In this document: positions 37,795-45,111 of the stretch, piece by piece
Layout: each line of letters starts with the position of its first letter
Position numbering within the stretch: the first letter of the stretch is position 1
NCBI GenBank assembly: GCA_944322005.1
Contig: CALUNL010000001.1
Span: forward strand, 1 to 64,000
Reading direction: 5' to 3'
DNA length: 64,000 nucleotides
Source of the DNA: an uncultured Alistipes sp.
GTDB taxonomy: Bacteria > Bacteroidota > Bacteroidia > Bacteroidales > Rikenellaceae
Program-made: the position numbers and the translations under genes
Notes under the pieces: generated by a model
Seen by the model: the letters and a program-made list of their open reading frames with translations, nothing else
Databases searched by the model: none
Told to the model about the DNA's origin: nothing

Positions 37795-39294
37795 ATGGAC
37801 ATGATAGTAACAAGCGAAAATTTCCTTCTCATCGGAGCTTTCCTGCTCTTTATCGCCGTGCTGGCCGGTAAGGTCGCATACCGTTTCGGTGCGCCCGCAC
37901 TGCTGCTGTTTCTTGGAGTTGGACTTTTTTTCGGGTACAGGCTAATTTCGTTCAACTCGCCGGAGTTGACACAGTTCATCGGAATGCTGGCGCTGTGTAT
38001 CATCCTCTTTTCGGGCGGTATGGATACGAAGTATTCCGAAATAAGGCCCGTAATGGCGCCGGGAATAGTGCTTGCTACGGTCGGGGTTCTGCTTACGGCT
38101 TTCATTCTCGGGGGATTCATATATTTCGTCGCTCCGTATATCGGCTTCGACCTCCCGTTCCCGGTGGCGCTGCTGCTTGCGGCGACGATGTCTTCGACCG
38201 ACTCGGCATCGGTATTCTCCATTCTCCGAACCAAAAAACAGGGGCTGCGTGAGCGCCTTCGCCCTCTGCTCGAATTGGAGAGCGGCTCCAACGACCCGAT
38301 GGCCTATATTCTCGTGATACTTATCGTGGGTATGCTATCGCCGGTACGGGAGACGCTCGGACTGGGGCAGAGTCTCGGCCTTTTCGTGCTGCAGATGACC
38401 GTCGGATGCGTTGCGGGTTACGGTTTCGGACGCGCTGCCGTATGGGTCATGAACAAGATCAACATCTCGACGGCCTCGCTCTATTCGGTGTTGCTGCTGG
38501 CCTGCGTCTTCTTCACATTCTCGTTCACGTCGCTCATCCAGGGCAACGGCTATCTGGCCGTATATATCGCCGGACTCGTGGTCGGCAACCACAAGATAGT
38601 ACAGAAGCGTACCGTAGTGACCTTCTTCGACGGCTTCACGTGGCTGTTCCAGATCATACTCTTCCTTACGTTGGGACTGCTCGTGGACCTGCACAAGCTT
38701 ATCGACTGGAATACGCTGTTCCTCGGCCTTGCCGTCAGTGCATTCATGATTCTCGTGGCGCGCCCCGTTTCGGTGCTGCTGTGTCTGGCGCCGTTCCGCA
38801 AATTCTCGATGCGTGCGCGCCTGTATGTGTCGTGGGTGGGCCTGCGAGGAGCAGTCCCGATAATATTCGCCACATATCCGCTCGTCGAGGGGCTCGAATA
38901 TGCCGAACTTATCTTCAACGTGGTCTTCATCGTGACCATCGTGTCGCTGCTGGTGCAGGGTACGACGGTCAGCGGCATGGCCAACCTGCTCGGCATGGCA
39001 TACGAGGAGCGCGAGAGCTCGTTCGGCGATGCACTGCAGGACCGCATGAAGTCGGCCTTTTCGGAGGTGGAGGTCAACGAGCAGATGCTGTCGTCCGGCA
39101 ATGCGTTGAGCAACATTTCGCTGCCCGACAATACGCTTGTCGTCATGGTATGCCGCGACGGTGACTACTTCGTGCCGCAGGGCCGTACGCAGCTGCAGGT
39201 CGGCGACAAGCTGCTCATACTTTCGGACCGCAACGAGGAGCTGCACATGCAGTACAAGGAGTTCGGACTGGACGACGTGATAAAGTTCTCGTAA
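37795..39294 (+). CDS. CPA1-family potassium (or sodium)/proton antiporter
   Basis: 499 residues: about 12 membrane helices then a cytoplasmic TrkA-C domain (from about 410). The transport core includes CIILFSGGMDTKYSEIRP, the ion-site region SSTDSASVFSIL and LELESGSNDPMAYILV, and SWVGLRGAVPIIFATYPLV, hallmarks of NhaP2/CvrA-type antiporters. The C-terminal NTLVVMVCRDGDYFVPQGRT is the regulatory RCK-like part. It exports K+ or Na+ in exchange for protons. The ion preference is inferred from the TrkA-C type. Confidence 0.88.
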   Translation: MDMIVTSENFLLIGAFLLFIAVLAGKVAYRFGAPALLLFLGVGLFFGYRLISFNSPELTQFIGMLALCIILFSGGMDTKYSEIRPVMAPGIVLATVGVLLTAFILGGFIYFVAPYIGFDLPFPVALLLAATMSSTDSASVFSILRTKKQGLRERLRPLLELESGSNDPMAYILVILIVGMLSPVRETLGLGQSLGLFVLQMTVGCVAGYGFGRAAVWVMNKINISTASLYSVLLLACVFFTFSFTSLIQGNGYLAVYIAGLVVGNHKIVQKRTVVTFFDGFTWLFQIILFLTLGLLVDLHKLIDWNTLFLGLAVSAFMILVARPVSVLLCLAPFRKFSMRARLYVSWVGLRGAVPIIFATYPLVEGLEYAELIFNVVFIVTIVSLLVQGTTVSGMANLLGMAYEERESSFGDALQDRMKSAFSEVEVNEQMLSSGNALSNISLPDNTLVVMVCRDGDYFVPQGRTQLQVGDKLLILSDRNEELHMQYKEFGLDDVIKFS

Positions 39295-39314
39295 CGGCGT
39301 CGTCCGACATGACA

Positions 39315-39348
39315 ACGGGGCGGGAATTATCCCGCCCCGTATTATTTT
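39315..39348. terminator. Terminator between the antiporter gene and korB
   Basis: ACGGGGCGGGA and TCCCGCCCCGT form a perfect 11-base stem with an ATTA loop, followed on the plus strand by ATTATTTT. The minus side has little T, so it works best for the antiporter gene. Confidence 0.88.
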
Positions 39349-39364
39349 GTGGAGTGAAAAGCGT

Positions 39365-40393
39365 TTACTCCTCCCATGTGTCGCCCGAGTGCAGAAGGTC
39401 GTCGACACACTTGATGCTGCTCGCGGCCTTGACCTCCTCGAGCTGCTCCGTGACCTTGGCGTCGTAGACGAACTCCTCCTCCACGTCGCGTATCACGCCC
39501 ACTGCAACCGGATAGTCCGGATACTTCATCGCCGCAAGCATCATGTGCAGCGTCGTGTCCTTGCGGTGTGCGTCGTGCGTCAGGATGTCGTCCATCGTGT
39601 AGCCGTCCTCGCCGATCGTGACGACCTTCAGCTGCATGTTCTCGAAGACCAGACCGCGGTTGCGCTCCGCTCCGAAGACCATCTTCTCGCCGTGGCGCAG
39701 CAGTACCGTATGTTCGGCGCGCGTGGCCTTGTCGCCGGCGAAGTCGGCATGGGTCTTGTTGTTGAATATCATACAGTTGACCAGAGCCTCGACAATTGAC
39801 ATTCCCTTGTGCTTCGCCGCCGCCACCAGCACATCCTTCGTGAGCTGCACCTCGGCATCGATGGTACGCGCGAAGAAGGTTCCCTTGGCTCCGATGACGA
39901 GTTCGCCCGGGTTGAACGGGTGCTCGATGGTGCCGTATGGCGAGGTTTTGGTGATTTTGCCGAGTTTGGTGGTCGGGGAGTACTGTCCCTTCGTGAGTCC
40001 GTATATCTCGTTGTTGAAAAGGATTACGTTGAGGTCGACGTTGCGACGGATGGCGTGTATGAAGTGGTTGCCGCCGATGGCGAGCGAGTCACCGTCGCCC
40101 GTGCACACCCATACCGATAGGTCGGGGTTGGCCACCTTCAGTCCCGTCGCGATGGCGTTAGCGCGACCGTGTATGGTGTGGAAACCGAAGGTCTTCATGT
40201 AGTAGATGAACCGCGAGGAGCATCCGATACCCGACACGAAGGTGAACATGTAGTGCGGTTTGTCGAGTGCGTCGGCAACCTCCGGCATCGCCCTCTGCAC
40301 GGCATGCAGTACGGCGTGGTCGCCGCAGCCCGGACACCATTTCACCTCCTGGTCGCTCTTGAAATCAGCCGGTGTATATTTGTAGTCTGCCAT
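39365..40393 (-). CDS. korB: 2-oxoacid:ferredoxin oxidoreductase subunit beta (2-oxoglutarate type)
   Basis: A 342-residue thiamine-diphosphate subunit. WCPGCGDHAVLHAVQ holds two of the iron-sulfur cysteines, CTGDGDSLAIGGNHFIHAIRRN is the ThDP/Mg2+ site, and VILFNNEIYGLTKGQYSPTT is the family's GLTGGQ-like stretch. With KorA it makes succinyl-CoA from 2-oxoglutarate while reducing ferredoxin, running oxidatively or as a reductive carboxylase. It follows korA by six bases. No KorC/KorD ferredoxin genes adjoin it. Confidence 0.92.
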   Translation of the reverse strand: MADYKYTPADFKSDQEVKWCPGCGDHAVLHAVQRAMPEVADALDKPHYMFTFVSGIGCSSRFIYYMKTFGFHTIHGRANAIATGLKVANPDLSVWVCTGDGDSLAIGGNHFIHAIRRNVDLNVILFNNEIYGLTKGQYSPTTKLGKITKTSPYGTIEHPFNPGELVIGAKGTFFARTIDAEVQLTKDVLVAAAKHKGMSIVEALVNCMIFNNKTHADFAGDKATRAEHTVLLRHGEKMVFGAERNRGLVFENMQLKVVTIGEDGYTMDDILTHDAHRKDTTLHMMLAAMKYPDYPVAVGVIRDVEEEFVYDAKVTEQLEEVKAASSIKCVDDLLHSGDTWEE

Positions 40394-42413: not shown

Positions 42414-43088
42414 CTATCTCAGCGAATTTATCCTGATGCTGGCCTTTACGACTGCCAGCGCACGCACGCGGTTGACCTCTATGTCCTTGTCGGCGTGGTG
42501 CGGGTTCTGGCTCACGAGCTTTATGCACCCCTCGCGTTCCGATTTCTGTATGTATTTCACGGTTACGTACTCCTCGCCGTCAATATCTATCGAGAGCAGG
42601 TACATGTCGCCCCAGAATATGTCGTCGATGTCGTGCAGCTGCTTGTAGAGTACGATGTCGCCGCTCTTGAGCAAAGGGTACATCGAATCTCCGACGACGT
42701 ATATGGCGCCGTCGCACTTCGGGAGGTTGGGGATGTGTATGTAGTTCACCGGCGTCCACGACTCCCTGTCGTTGAAGAGCGGCACGAGTCCTGCCGTCCC
42801 CTCTATCGAGTATAGCGGTACGCTCTGCAGCGGCAGCGAGTTGTCCGTGCGGTGGGTGAATGCGTTGGTCAGATTCGGTTCTGCATTGAACATGTCGCCC
42901 TTTCCATCCTCTATCCATTCGGGATTGACGTTCAATTCCTGAACAAGTATGTTCCTGTTGCGCGAAGAGAGCCTCGTCTTCCCGGTCTCTATCATCGAGA
43001 GGGCTGTTTTGCCGATTCCAAGTCTCTGTGCGAGTTGCTCTTGCGTTAGCCCCAGCGCCTTGCGTATCAATTTTACTCTGCTCTCCAT
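42414..43088 (-). CDS. XRE-family repressor with S24 (LexA/CI-like) peptidase domain
   Basis: A 224-residue phage-type repressor. Residues about 4-60 are a helix-turn-helix (LIRKALGLTQEQLAQRLGIG, TALSMIETGKTRLS). The C-terminal S24 domain has the nucleophile in YVVGDSMYP (Ser135) and the general base in EEYVTVKYIQK (Lys178). An Ala99-Gly100 bond in EGTAGLVPL is a plausible self-cleavage site. This suggests a CI-like switch released by RecA-coated DNA. It diverges from the 98-residue gene with a 138-base promoter region holding a palindrome, and has its own terminator. Confidence 0.88.
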   Translation of the reverse strand: MESRVKLIRKALGLTQEQLAQRLGIGKTALSMIETGKTRLSSRNRNILVQELNVNPEWIEDGKGDMFNAEPNLTNAFTHRTDNSLPLQSVPLYSIEGTAGLVPLFNDRESWTPVNYIHIPNLPKCDGAIYVVGDSMYPLLKSGDIVLYKQLHDIDDIFWGDMYLLSIDIDGEEYVTVKYIQKSEREGCIKLVSQNPHHADKDIEVNRVRALAVVKASIRINSLR

Positions 43089-43137
43089 AATTTTTTATCG
43101 GAAATAATTATGCAAAAATTGAACATTTGTTGTATCA

Positions 43138-43156
43138 ATATTCAATAACTGAATAT
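43138..43156. promoter_or_regulatory. Candidate operator for the XRE-S24 repressor
   Basis: ATATTCA-ataac-TGAATAT is a perfect seven-base inverted repeat, 19 bases in all. It ends on the first base of the -7 box of the divergent promoter, so a bound dimer would block it. A looser partner (ATTGA at 43119-43123 with TCAAT at 43135-43139) lies next to it, nearer the repressor gene. Confidence 0.55.
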
Positions 43157-43163
43157 ATCTTTG
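43156..43163 (+). promoter_or_regulatory. -7 box of the promoter for the 98-residue protein gene
   Basis: TATCTTTG, an exact TAnnTTTG match. A TTG at 43130-43132 is 23 bases upstream, slightly far. The leader would be about 57 bases and contains a seven-codon reading frame (ATG at 43192, stop at 43213-43215). Confidence 0.55.
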
Positions 43164-43226
43164 CACTGCAAAGTTAAAAAATTTAATTCTAATGACCAAA
43201 CGATCGAATGAATAATTCTCCTGCCT

Positions 43227-43523
43227 ATGTATCATGTCTCTTGTGAAAGCTATGAAAAGCTGGCCGACCGCATCCGCGAATCTTTGCGCAACATCCACTA
43301 CTTCAACGGTTCCGTCGCCGTGTGTACGGACGGTGAGACGGAGTGCCGTCTCATCGCCACGCTGATAATATACCGCCGTCGCATCGAGTCCTTCTCCGAG
43401 GATGTGGATTCGATAGCCGATGTGATTCCCGTATGGTGGGAGTGCCGTACGACTGTCGACGGCATGGAGGTGTGCAACGATTTCGATTTCGCGTCCCTGC
43501 GCGAGTGCCTTGTGGAGGATTGA
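43227..43523 (+). CDS. 98-residue acidic protein of the repressor-terminase module, unrecognised
   Basis: A small soluble protein, MYHVSCESYEKLADRIRESL at the start and CNDFDFASLRECLVED at the end, with central strands CRLIATLIIYRRRIES and VIPVWWECRTT. No signal or membrane segment. I do not recognise a family. It is encoded head to head with the S24 repressor under an operator-like palindrome and 134 bases before terL, separated from terL by a terminator-like hairpin. It could be a phage-derived regulator or terminase partner; nothing in the sequence decides. Confidence 0.65.
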   Translation: MYHVSCESYEKLADRIRESLRNIHYFNGSVAVCTDGETECRLIATLIIYRRRIESFSEDVDSIADVIPVWWECRTTVDGMEVCNDFDFASLRECLVED

Positions 43524-43584
43524 CCCTCCCGTCCGGCCCTGCGGCAATCCTGTCTGTGAGCGATGCCTCCGCCGCGGGCCTTTC

Positions 43585-43626
43585 GGGGCTGCCCATCCTC
43601 CGCATCGGGAGACGGCCCCTTTTTTT
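43585..43626 (+). terminator. Terminator/attenuator between the 98-residue gene and terL
   Basis: GGGGC (43585-43589) pairs with GCCCC (43615-43619), with an inner CTCC/GGAG stem, and seven T residues follow at once. terL starts 31 bases later and no separate promoter is seen, so terL expression may depend on readthrough. Confidence 0.6.
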
Positions 43627-43656
43627 GTCAACGATAAGAGTGAAATATCATGTATT

Positions 43657-45111
43657 ATGAGAAAAAGCAAGAATGAATCTCCCGCCGCAAGCGGCGAAAT
43701 GTCCCTCCCTTCGTTCGGTACGTTCGCAACGTGCGTCTATCCGTTTCTTGAGATAAGGCCGTTCCACGGTGTCTATTACCGCCTTCTGGAGGCGTTCGCA
43801 TGCGGACGCGTGCGGAAACTCATAGTGACGATGCCGCCGCAGCACGGAAAGAGTGTGGGTGCCACGACACTTTTGCCGGCATACATGCTCGGGCTCTGCC
43901 CCGACATGCGGATAGCCATAGCCTCCTATTCGGCGTCGCTTGCCTCTAAGTTCAACCGCCGCGTACAGCGCATCCTCGAATCGGAGGAGTACGGCGCCAT
44001 GTTTCCCGGGACGACCATAAAGCGCGGCGCGAAGCCGGCCAACTATATCCGTACCGCCGACGAGGTGGAGATTGTCGGCCATGGCGGGGCGTTGATGTCG
44101 GTCGGGCGCGAGGGCTCGCTTACGGGCAACCGCGTCGACTGCTTCATCCTCGACGACCTCTACAAGGATGCCATGGAGGCCAATTCGCCCATCATCCGCG
44201 AGAACTGCTGGGAGTGGTACACGTCGGTAGTGAAGACGCGCATGCACAACGACTCGCGCGAGCTGATAGTCTTCACGCGCTGGCACGAGGAGGACCTCAT
44301 AGGCGAGCTGTGCCGCCTCGAACCCTTCGTGGAGTTCCGTTCGTGGGCGGATATGGAGTCGCTGCCGCAGAATACGTGGCTGTACCTCAATTTCGAGGCG
44401 CTGAAGTGTTCCCCGCCGAGCGAGATTGACCCGCGCGAGGCGGGGGAGGCGTTGTGGGAGGAGCGGCACAGTGCGGCGCTGCTGCTCGACAAGCGCCGTC
44501 TCGACCCGCTGCGCTTCGAATGCCTATACCAGGGCCATCCGTCATCGCGCGAGGGGCTTCTCTATGGCGACCACTTTGCCGAATACGACACCCTGCCTGC
44601 GGATGTGGTCCGCTGGGGCAACTATACCGATACGGCCGATACGGGCGACGACTATCTGTGTTCGGTCTGCTACGGTGTCGACCCGGACGGGGTGGTCTAT
44701 GTCACGGATGTGGTCTATTCCCGCGAGCCGATGGAGGTTACGGAACCGCTGGTCGGTGAGATGCTTTGCTCGACGCCGACGCGTTTCGCCGTCATCGAGA
44801 GCAACAACGGCGGCCGCGGCTTTGCGCGGGCCGTGCAGCGGCTTGCACCGCGCGTAAGGGTAGAGTGGTTCCACCAGTCCGGCAACAAGGAGGCGCGAAT
44901 CCTCTCCAATTCGGCGACGCTCATCCATTCGCTGCGCTTCCCGCGCGGGTGGCGCGACCGCTGGCCCGAACTCTACTCGCATCTGACGACATACCGCCGC
45001 CTGTTCCGCTCGAACCGCTGGCATGACGCCCCCGATGCCCTTACCGGCGTCGTCGAGCGCGAGATTGTCGACCGTACGTCGCCGATGCGGCGGATTGCCT
45101 TCAAGCGGTAA
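43657..45111 (+). CDS. Phage terminase large subunit (TerL), orphan
   Basis: 484 residues with both halves of a DNA-packaging terminase. ATPase: Walker A PPQHGKS at 60-66, Walker B FILDDLYKD with Asp166-Asp167, and a coupling motif region FTRWHEEDLIG. Nuclease (RNase H-like): YGVDPDG with Asp342, VIESNNGGRG with Glu381, and HDAPDAL with Asp457/Asp460. All catalytic residues expected are present. No portal, capsid, tail, small terminase or integrase genes flank it. The ATG at 43657 is preferred over an upstream frame that reads through a terminator. Likely a conserved phage remnant or domesticated enzyme. Confidence 0.88.
   Translation: MRKSKNESPAASGEMSLPSFGTFATCVYPFLEIRPFHGVYYRLLEAFACGRVRKLIVTMPPQHGKSVGATTLLPAYMLGLCPDMRIAIASYSASLASKFNRRVQRILESEEYGAMFPGTTIKRGAKPANYIRTADEVEIVGHGGALMSVGREGSLTGNRVDCFILDDLYKDAMEANSPIIRENCWEWYTSVVKTRMHNDSRELIVFTRWHEEDLIGELCRLEPFVEFRSWADMESLPQNTWLYLNFEALKCSPPSEIDPREAGEALWEERHSAALLLDKRRLDPLRFECLYQGHPSSREGLLYGDHFAEYDTLPADVVRWGNYTDTADTGDDYLCSVCYGVDPDGVVYVTDVVYSREPMEVTEPLVGEMLCSTPTRFAVIESNNGGRGFARAVQRLAPRVRVEWFHQSGNKEARILSNSATLIHSLRFPRGWRDRWPELYSHLTTYRRLFRSNRWHDAPDALTGVVEREIVDRTSPMRRIAFKR

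What the first reader, a model, noticed from the sequence alone, without database searches (positions are those of the whole stretch)
42414..45111. Compact repressor / 98-residue protein / orphan terminase module
A CI-like XRE-S24 repressor faces a small protein of no known family, followed by a terminase large subunit. The whole island is 2.7 kb between korA and hppA. The sequence shows that the S24 Ser135/Lys178 pair, the TerL Walker A and B motifs and the three nuclease acidic residues are all kept, while no portal, capsid, tail, small terminase or integrase is near. Decaying prophage usually breaks such genes. Kept catalytic sites plus damage-responsive control suggest a domesticated packaging motor: a gene-transfer or DNA-processing device, a defence system, or a satellite that borrows capsids. 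The function is inference.
Basis: partly seen in the sequence, partly recalled or inferred. Interest (0 to 1): 0.8.

Follow-up and report, generated by a model that had tools for sequence, protein, structure and literature searches.

The report
Putative gene transfer agent in Alistipes
Gut bacteria of the Alistipes family seem to have kept a tamed virus in two pieces of their chromosome, one of which (a DNA-packing motor under its own switch) is the finding, and it probably wraps up bits of bacterial DNA and ships them to other cells.

Summary
The three genes are real and intact: a divergent XRE-S24 repressor, a 98-aa protein of no known family, and a complete TerL. They are not a prophage scar, and not really an orphan. 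TerL is in 108 of 112 genomes of the family (Rikenellaceae; 14 of 16 genera), forms one clade, tracks host genes and is under purifying selection, but is rare elsewhere in the order (12 of 291, at most 49% identity). The portal family of its closest phage relatives is just as common (108 of 112), but sits elsewhere. In this genome it lies on another contig in a ~9 kb block with head-maturation protease, major head protein, DUF6712 protein, phage-like genes, holin and a putative lysis gene. TerL and portal distances correlate (r = 0.83); two of the four genomes without TerL also lack the portal. In seven loci of five other genera a small-terminase-like remnant stands before terL without a DNA-recognition domain, and the tape-measure slot is nearly empty. 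Best reading: the packaging locus of a family-wide, split-locus gene transfer agent of independent origin. Seven literature searches showed no GTA described in Bacteroidota. That particles form, carry random host DNA and deliver it is inference.

The parts
42414..43088 (-). XRE-S24 (CI/LexA-like) repressor, 224 aa, Ser135/Lys178, Ala99-Gly100
   Evidence: found beside TerL in 77 of 80 named loci
43141..43163 (+). palindromic operator-like site TTCAAwwhyTGAA overlapping a Bacteroidota-type promoter (TAnnTTTG); binding not tested
   Evidence: in 8 genomes the pattern with up to 1 mismatch hits the cassette in 6 (not G063, G104) and otherwise only one coding sequence, in G000 and G030; reversed control 0 hits
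43227..43523 (+). 98-aa protein, predicted alpha-beta4-alpha fold, function unknown
43585..43626 (+). G+C-rich hairpin followed by a T-run between the 98-aa gene and terL (terminator-like, tentative)
   Evidence: sequence (similar in 24 of 79 loci, no shuffled control); fold of the whole gap no better than shuffles; generic scan did not list it
43657..45111 (+). terL, large terminase (ATPase + RNase H-like nuclease), 484 aa, catalytic motifs kept

Best explanation
The island is the packaging locus of a domesticated tailed phage that the family Rikenellaceae has kept as a gene transfer agent (GTA). Shown: a family-core terL cassette; a separate portal gene that is equally core, lying (in the 19 genomes examined) in a block with ClpP-type head-maturation protease, major head protein, DUF6712 protein and further phage genes, with a holin in some genera and a putative lysis gene in Alistipes; co-inheritance of TerL and portal; small-terminase-like remnants without the DNA-recognition half; no integrase or replication gene recognised among the genes annotated. 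Inferred mechanism: the S24 repressor sits on the palindrome over the promoter of the 98-aa gene and terL; DNA damage (RecA-stimulated autocleavage, established for S24 repressors) lifts it in a few cells; the structural block is switched on by another signal, perhaps through the 98-aa protein; TerL, without a pac-reading small terminase, loads host DNA headful by headful into small heads with a very short tail or none; holin and lysis protein open the cell; particles deliver DNA to kin.
For: TerL in 108 of 112 family genomes, 106 of 110 high quality, 14 of 16 genera, but 12 of 291 genomes of the order outside the family. Portal phrog_11226 in 108 of 112 family genomes against 18 of 291 outside. 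G139 and G142 lack both; G043 and G127 lack only TerL, G122 and G129 only the portal. Structural block: protease, major head protein, portal and DUF6712 in 19 of 19 family genomes chosen for a portal match (protease only a partial match in 3); G000 block annotated. Core TerLs one clade in 98% of 200 bootstraps, phages as sister rows. TerL distances follow tsaD (r 0.82, n 33), korA (0.75, n 30) and the portal (0.83, n 18). dN/dS 0.04-0.09 in the six closest TerL pairs. Small-terminase-like remnants without N-terminal HTH in seven loci of five genera. Tape-measure slot reduced. A single conserved terL outside the structural cluster is also described for Brachyspira GTA (PMC9662315, passages).
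Against: No particle, packaged DNA or transfer has been shown. The operator is not seen at the structural block of this genome, so co-regulation of the two loci is unproven. Major-head distances correlate poorly with TerL (r 0.28, 16 of 999 permutations as high) and those of the repressor hardly with most structural genes. Genera g10 and g13 lack c5/c2 in the stretches fetched, and the two g13 loci lack repressor and 98-aa gene. Four of the 94 genus genomes with the 98-aa protein show one stop in it. A gut survey of packaged DNA names Ruminococcaceae, Oscillospiraceae and Christensenellaceae for 23 of 25 GTA events; Rikenellaceae, among the most abundant families in total DNA, are not named there and 'Alistipes' does not occur in its main text (PMC12946183).
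Confidence: 0.72

Rival explanations
1. PBSX-like defective phage: the two loci make particles that package random host DNA but act as a bacteriocin against competitors rather than as a gene carrier.
For: Same gene content is compatible (portal, head, terminase, lysis); an own S24 repressor fits damage induction.
Against: A long tail with tape measure would be expected for killing by adsorption (recalled for PBSX); here the tape-measure slot is empty in G000 or holds 96-250 aa in four other loci. Family-wide vertical maintenance is more typical of GTAs.
Confidence: 0.12
2. Domesticated phage parts with another job: for example a defence or DNA-processing device in which TerL cuts or translocates DNA, with the head genes serving something else.
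For: The two loci are far apart in Alistipes (G000 on different contigs; G124 at 3.27 Mb and 1.26 Mb) and do not share the operator in G000.
Against: TerL and portal are each in 108 of 112 genomes, the portal beside protease and major head protein in 19 of 19 blocks, and TerL and portal lie within about 2-12 kb of each other in several genomes of g2, g10, g13 and g14 (coordinates); no PADLOC match for TerL.
Confidence: 0.08
3. A satellite or packaging motor that borrows capsids of infecting phages.
For: In the window no capsid gene was recognised near terL.
Against: An own portal is present in 108 of 112 family genomes with a head block in the 19 examined, and inheritance is vertical, unlike mobile satellites.
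Confidence: 0.05
4. Ordinary decaying prophage scar.
For: No small terminase in this window and no tape measure in the G000 block; a few genomes show a split or stop-bearing TerL (G146 one TGA, G008 and G102 split matches), and four a stop in the 98-aa gene.
Against: Near-universal presence, invariant catalytic residues and purifying selection similar to tsaD.
Confidence: 0.03

Closest known systems
Brachyspira GTA (BhGTA, VSH-1; family Brachygtaviriformidae)
   Same: A single-copy, genus-conserved terL outside the structural cluster; probably multi-locus; endolysin gene; co-diversification with host (PMC9662315, passages)
   Different: Other phylum and particle proteins; BhGTA has experimental particles and transfer; here terL travels with its own S24 repressor and a new 98-aa protein
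Rhodobacter capsulatus GTA (RcGTA; Rhodogtaviriformidae)
   Same: TerL of headful type (PMC7947584, abstract); GTA small terminases are 10-50% shorter than phage ones and lie just upstream of terL, and a section heading states weak DNA binding (PMC6854486, outline, abstract and section 10)
   Different: Most RcGTA genes lie in one main cluster (recalled) with terS present; here packaging and structural loci are split in Alistipes and no terS is recognised in this window
Faecalibacterium FpGTA I/II
   Same: Gut anaerobe; two separate operons; possible TerS without DNA-binding domain; particles without identifiable tails; holin/endolysin in one operon (PMC12946183 section 9)
   Different: Bacillota; [quoted passage not shown] terL in the same operon as portal and capsid; particles demonstrated
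Prophages of Alistipes sp. (G006 contig 31; G068 contig 34) and the IMG/VR contig of L223
   Same: Nearest TerLs (55-59% identity); in the two prophages the same order c6-c5-c2-c7-protease-head-portal-DUF6712
   Different: Long tape-measure-like gene between c2 and c7 (893 aa in G006 with phrog_167 match, 1103 aa in G068 unsearched); full small terminase in G006 (phrog_51 8e-31); no 98-aa gene found by tblastn
phrog_38 / TIGR01630 large terminases
   Same: Sequence family of the window TerL
   Different: The family is phage in general; the Rikenellaceae clade is chromosomal and core

Membership tests
Gene transfer agent (definition of Kogay et al. 2022, PMC9662315, passages read) | Caudoviricete-derived proteins form the particle (by sequence similarity or images) | tested here: met
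   By sequence only: TerL, portal, head-maturation protease, virion structural protein, holin
Gene transfer agent (definition of Kogay et al. 2022, PMC9662315, passages read) | Genome fully endogenised in the host, often at several loci | tested here: met
   Two loci on different contigs in G000; 108 of 112 genomes for TerL and for portal; no integrase recognised among the genes seen (only part of them family-searched)
Gene transfer agent (definition of Kogay et al. 2022, PMC9662315, passages read) | Mostly vertical inheritance, co-diversification with host | tested here: met
   One clade; TerL against tsaD r 0.82, against korA r 0.75, 0 of 499 permutations as high; within Alistipes, with host genes that neighbour TerL, so partly linked; no species tree was made
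Gene transfer agent (definition of Kogay et al. 2022, PMC9662315, passages read) | Particles mostly hold random host DNA | not testable with these tools
   Only indirect: small-terminase-like remnants lack the HTH in seven loci of five genera; none recognised in the 133-nt gap of this window
Gene transfer agent (definition of Kogay et al. 2022, PMC9662315, passages read) | Head too small for the whole GTA genome | not testable with these tools
   Needs packaged DNA length; two loci more than 1 Mb apart in G124 cannot be in one head (coordinates), which is inference
Gene transfer agent (definition of Kogay et al. 2022, PMC9662315, passages read) | Packaged DNA is delivered to other cells | not testable with these tools
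Active temperate prophage | Integrase, replication genes, full head-tail set in one block | tested here: not met
   terL and portal blocks separate in G000; tape measure missing there; the flanking genes searched are housekeeping or competence genes
Phage satellite (PICI-like) | Mobile, patchy distribution, integrase | tested here: not met
   In 14 of 16 genera and vertical
Known anti-phage defence system | Match to a PADLOC family beyond a generic HTH | tested here: not met
   No PADLOC match for the 98-aa protein or TerL; matches for the repressor cover its HTH part only

The most novel reading that the evidence does not exclude
A bona fide gene transfer agent of independent origin, present since about the ancestor of the Rikenellaceae and in nearly every Alistipes of human and animal guts: the first in the phylum Bacteroidota as far as my searches show. 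It is run by its own CI-like repressor with a new small partner protein, and in genomes such as this one it packages DNA with no recognisable small terminase into a nearly tailless particle.
Probability: 0.6. Interest if true: 0.9.

Novelty: new variant of a known kind. Interest (0 to 1): 0.85.

Why it matters
GTAs are described from few lineages: Alphaproteobacteria, Brachyspira, Desulfovibrio, Methanococcus and lately Faecalibacterium (named in passages or sections of PMC12946183, PMC9662315 and PMC6854486). One that is core to a whole family of abundant gut Bacteroidota would be a standing route for random gene exchange in the gut, and would explain pieces that viral catalogues list as viruses. 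It also offers a natural series for the question of how a packaging motor loses DNA specificity: phage with a full TerS, genera with a TerS-like remnant that has lost its DNA-reading half, and this genome with none recognised.

Tried and rejected
1. First test for structural genes used phrog_64 (portal) and phrog_29 (major head), found in prophages carrying other TerLs: 9 of 112 genomes each, the same nine, none in G000. I first read this as 'no cognate capsid'. That was wrong: the closest phages of the core TerL (L114/L304, L115/L305) use another portal family, phrog_11226, and that one is core.

2. S24 repressor as a global SOS regulator: not supported at the stringency used; the operator+promoter pattern was found at the cassette in 6 of 8 genomes and otherwise only inside one coding sequence in G000 and G030. 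A matrix scan of the structural blocks gave no strong site in G000; one site in G135 (L330:32) is unexplained, another there (L330:19080) I take for the cassette's own.

3. 98-aa protein as a small terminase: not supported; in genera g2, g4 and g9 it stands beside a separate small-terminase remnant. No family, no PDB sequence match, no PDB or BFVD fold match at E below 0.001, no relative in the other 295 of 296 sampled genomes of the class (the listing does not show whether other Rikenellaceae were drawn), none in IMG/VR with the single sequence.

4. PDB sequence matches of TerL to TAL effectors are weak repeated segments and taken as spurious.

5. Terminator between the 98-aa gene and terL: a home-made search finds one in 24 of 79 loci without shuffled control; the tool's scan did not list it and the fold of the whole gap is no better than shuffles. 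Left open. No small terminase was sought locus by locus in the Alistipes gaps (-5 to 1350 nt in 78 loci).

6. Mantel tests: of 21 gene pairs, those of repressor with head, protease, DUF6712 and c2 (r 0.04-0.26), head with protease (0.09), and head with portal and TerL (0.26, 0.28) are weak. Alignment outliers were not cleaned.

7. Tree: a subset was given (20 of 80 named loci, 27 of 80 viral loci, the 20 core loci, the window, and 13 of 15 second-copy loci; rows covering under 350 residues were dropped).

8. Literature: searches gave no listing that I recognised as describing a GTA in Bacteroidota; I opened five papers only. Most subscription papers and bioRxiv are not held.
Full report
WHAT IS THERE. 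The window (contig C1 of a 1.84 Mb, seven-contig genome, G000) holds at 42414-45111 a divergent XRE-S24 repressor, a 98-aa ORF and a large terminase. TerL is phrog_38 (8.6e-85) and TIGR01630; Walker A, the Walker B aspartates and three nuclease acidic residues are kept and invariant in 17 aligned family members, 16 distinct. It is the only TerL found in this genome. The repressor has Ser135, Lys178 and Ala99-Gly100. Between the divergent genes lies a palindrome TTCAA-www-yTGAA over a Bacteroidota-type promoter (TAnnTTTG), present within three mismatches in 55 of 71 distinct intergenic sequences.

HOW WIDESPREAD. In the genus (named Alistipes by contigs shared with public records) TerL is in 96 of 101 genomes (38 of 39 good ones), as a rule once and 69-79% identical, with no stop in the listed matches. 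The 98-aa protein is in 94 of 101, as a rule beside it; four of its matches have one internal stop. In the family TerL is in 108 of 112 genomes and 14 of 16 genera. In the order it appears in 16 of 295 genomes, four of them of this family, the other twelve at 49% identity or less. Of 80 named loci fetched (the best of 267 found), 77 hold the repressor and 78 the 98-aa gene next to TerL; the misses are at contig ends except one, the 98-aa gene of L209. In 20 loci from 13 genera (some of the Alistipes ones are also among the 80) tblastn finds the repressor in 18 and the 98-aa protein in 16; the two g13 loci have neither. In a sample of 296 genomes of the class the 98-aa protein was found only in G000.

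NOT A SCAR. dN/dS of TerL is 0.04-0.09 in the six closest pairs and 0.18 at the median of 563 usable pairs of 3081; tsaD gives 0.131 at the median (184 of 559 pairs), the repressor 0.118, the 98-aa protein 0.362. Core TerLs form one clade in 98% of 200 bootstrap trees (41 of 81 rows; a subset of loci was given); the nearest other rows are prophages of two Alistipes genomes and one IMG/VR contig. Within Alistipes, TerL distances follow the host genes tsaD (r 0.82, n 33) and korA (r 0.75, n 30) about as well as these follow each other (0.85, n 21). korA lies near TerL in 25 and tsaD in 33 of the 80 named loci, and tsaD and tamB also in genus g8; elsewhere the neighbours differ.

THE MISSING HALF. 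A first search with the portal and head families of other prophages found them in only 9 of 112 genomes. The two closest prophages, however, have another module order: TerL, c6, c5, c2, tape-measure-like gene, c7, ClpP-type protease, head, portal, DUF6712. Their portal family, phrog_11226, is in 108 of 112 family genomes (14 of 16 genera), with no stop in the listed matches; phrog_12 finds the same 108. Outside the family it is in 18 of 291 genomes of the order. G139 and G142 lack both TerL and portal; G043 and G127 lack only TerL, G122 and G129 only the portal, as incomplete assemblies would give. In G000 the portal lies on contig C2 at about 39116-40336(-), in a block from about 37.8 to 46.9 kb: c6, c5, c2, c7, protease (phrog_94 4.4e-41), head protein (phrog_1623 1.4e-7), c10, portal (phrog_11226 4.3e-18; Pfam Phage_portal 38.4 bits, just under its cut-off of 39.1), DUF6712 (6.2e-12), holin (PF05105 2.9e-10) and a 148-aa protein that I take for a lysis enzyme (recalled; no Pfam match). 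Around it lie menaquinone biosynthesis, a ComEC/Rec2 competence gene (PF03772 1.2e-47), a phosphate transporter and peptidyl-tRNA hydrolase. In 19 family genomes chosen because they had a portal match, protease (3 partial), head protein, portal and DUF6712 are in 19, c5 and c2 in 16, c7 in 14, c6 in 12, c10 in 10, holin in 8, the 148-aa protein in 6, all six being the Alistipes examined. TerL and portal distances correlate at 0.83 over 18 genomes (0 of 999 permutations as high); head against TerL only at 0.28 (16 of 999). TerL and portal are about 2-3 kb apart in 4 of 5 genomes of g10 and g13, 11-12 kb in 4 of 11 of g14 and 8-10 kb in 2 of 7 of g2; in Alistipes they are on different contigs or far apart where I looked, for example more than 1 Mb in the one-contig genome G124 (coordinates). 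So the splitting looks derived, which is inference.

SIGNS OF DOMESTICATION. In g2, g4 and g9 (four loci compared) a gene between the 98-aa gene and terL matches only the C-terminal half of a phage small terminase (L096: phrog_309 positions 200-260 of 319, 9.5e-8; blastp 4e-12 to 2e-5 to the L112 small terminase). In g10 a short gene in the same place matches the C-terminal part of the gene before the L115 TerL (8.8e-6), and the two g13 genes match the g10 one (1.7e-10 and 2.6e-8) but not L115 itself (E 0.2 or worse). That L115 gene is taken for a small terminase by position; its PHROG matches are phrog_645 and an HTH-type transposase family at its N-terminus. All seven lack the N-terminal part. 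In this window the gap is 133 nt and holds none. GTA small terminases are known to be shorter than phage ones, with similarity at the C-terminus that contacts TerL (PMC6854486, section 10). Where the G006 prophage has an 893-aa protein with tape-measure matches (phrog_167 1.1e-5), the core block has nothing in G000 or 96-250 aa in four other loci, three of which share a C-terminal motif searched for; calling these tape-measure remnants is inference.

MECHANISM. Shown by sequence: parts, co-inheritance, selection. Inferred: repression by the S24 protein at the palindrome, relief after DNA damage, headful packaging of host DNA without pac recognition, small heads, lysis and delivery. The structural block of G000 shows no copy of the operator, so a second signal, possibly the 98-aa protein as activator or antiterminator, is needed; this is a guess. 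Four of 95 repressors (L101, L103, L109, L110; genera g7, g10, g15, g16) lack part of the cleavage signature, so control must differ there.

AGAINST WHAT IS KNOWN. Of the six defining GTA features listed by Kogay et al. 2022 (passages), three are met by sequence and three need experiments. The layout recalls Brachyspira, whose conserved terL also lies outside the particle cluster, and Faecalibacterium FpGTA with two operons and a possible TerS without DNA-binding domain (section 9). Seven paper searches listed no paper that I recognised as describing a GTA in Bacteroidota. Of nine IMG/VR contigs whose portal resembles this one, six at 62-73% identity carry several genes of the structural block, and in none of the nine was TerL found, so public virus catalogues probably hold pieces of it.

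VERDICT. A domesticated, family-core, split-locus phage system: very likely. That it works as a gene transfer agent: probable (0.72). First-reader idea of a domesticated packaging motor: right in direction, but not orphan.

Noticed in passing
L334:795-2270 (G000 contig C2, about 36.3-37.8 kb): A ComEC/Rec2 competence gene (PF03772 1.2e-47) directly follows the lysis end of the structural block; also found in 5 of the 6 Alistipes blocks examined, counting G000. A DNA-uptake gene beside a GTA is suggestive, but may be chance synteny.
   Followed up: partly
L342-L347 (IMG/VR contigs): Six short IMG/VR contigs with 62-73% portal identity carry genes of the same structural block and no TerL: GTA blocks probably catalogued as viruses.
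   Followed up: partly
window 43585-43626; 98-aa gene-terL gaps of L164, L168, L173, L176, L180, L186, L198, L215, L217: G+C-rich hairpin plus T-run between the 98-aa gene and terL in 24 of 79 loci by a home-made search without control; terL would then need read-through or antitermination.
   Followed up: partly
L101, L103, L109, L110 repressors: S24 catalytic Ser, Lys or the Ala-Gly site is replaced in genera g7, g10, g15 and g16: DNA-damage control may have been lost there.
   Followed up: no
G137:C3:18498-20027 and G138:C31:6276-7799: TerL of two g2 genomes is found as two matches separated by about 0.12-0.14 kb within one open frame without stops, between ATPase and nuclease halves.
   Followed up: no
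G006 contigs 9, 16 and 31: One Alistipes genome holds both a core TerL and portal and a related prophage with the same head-tail module, so recombination between them is possible.
   Followed up: no
L330:32-44 (G135): A perfect operator-like palindrome near the start of the structural block in one g2 genome: there the repressor may control both loci.
   Followed up: no
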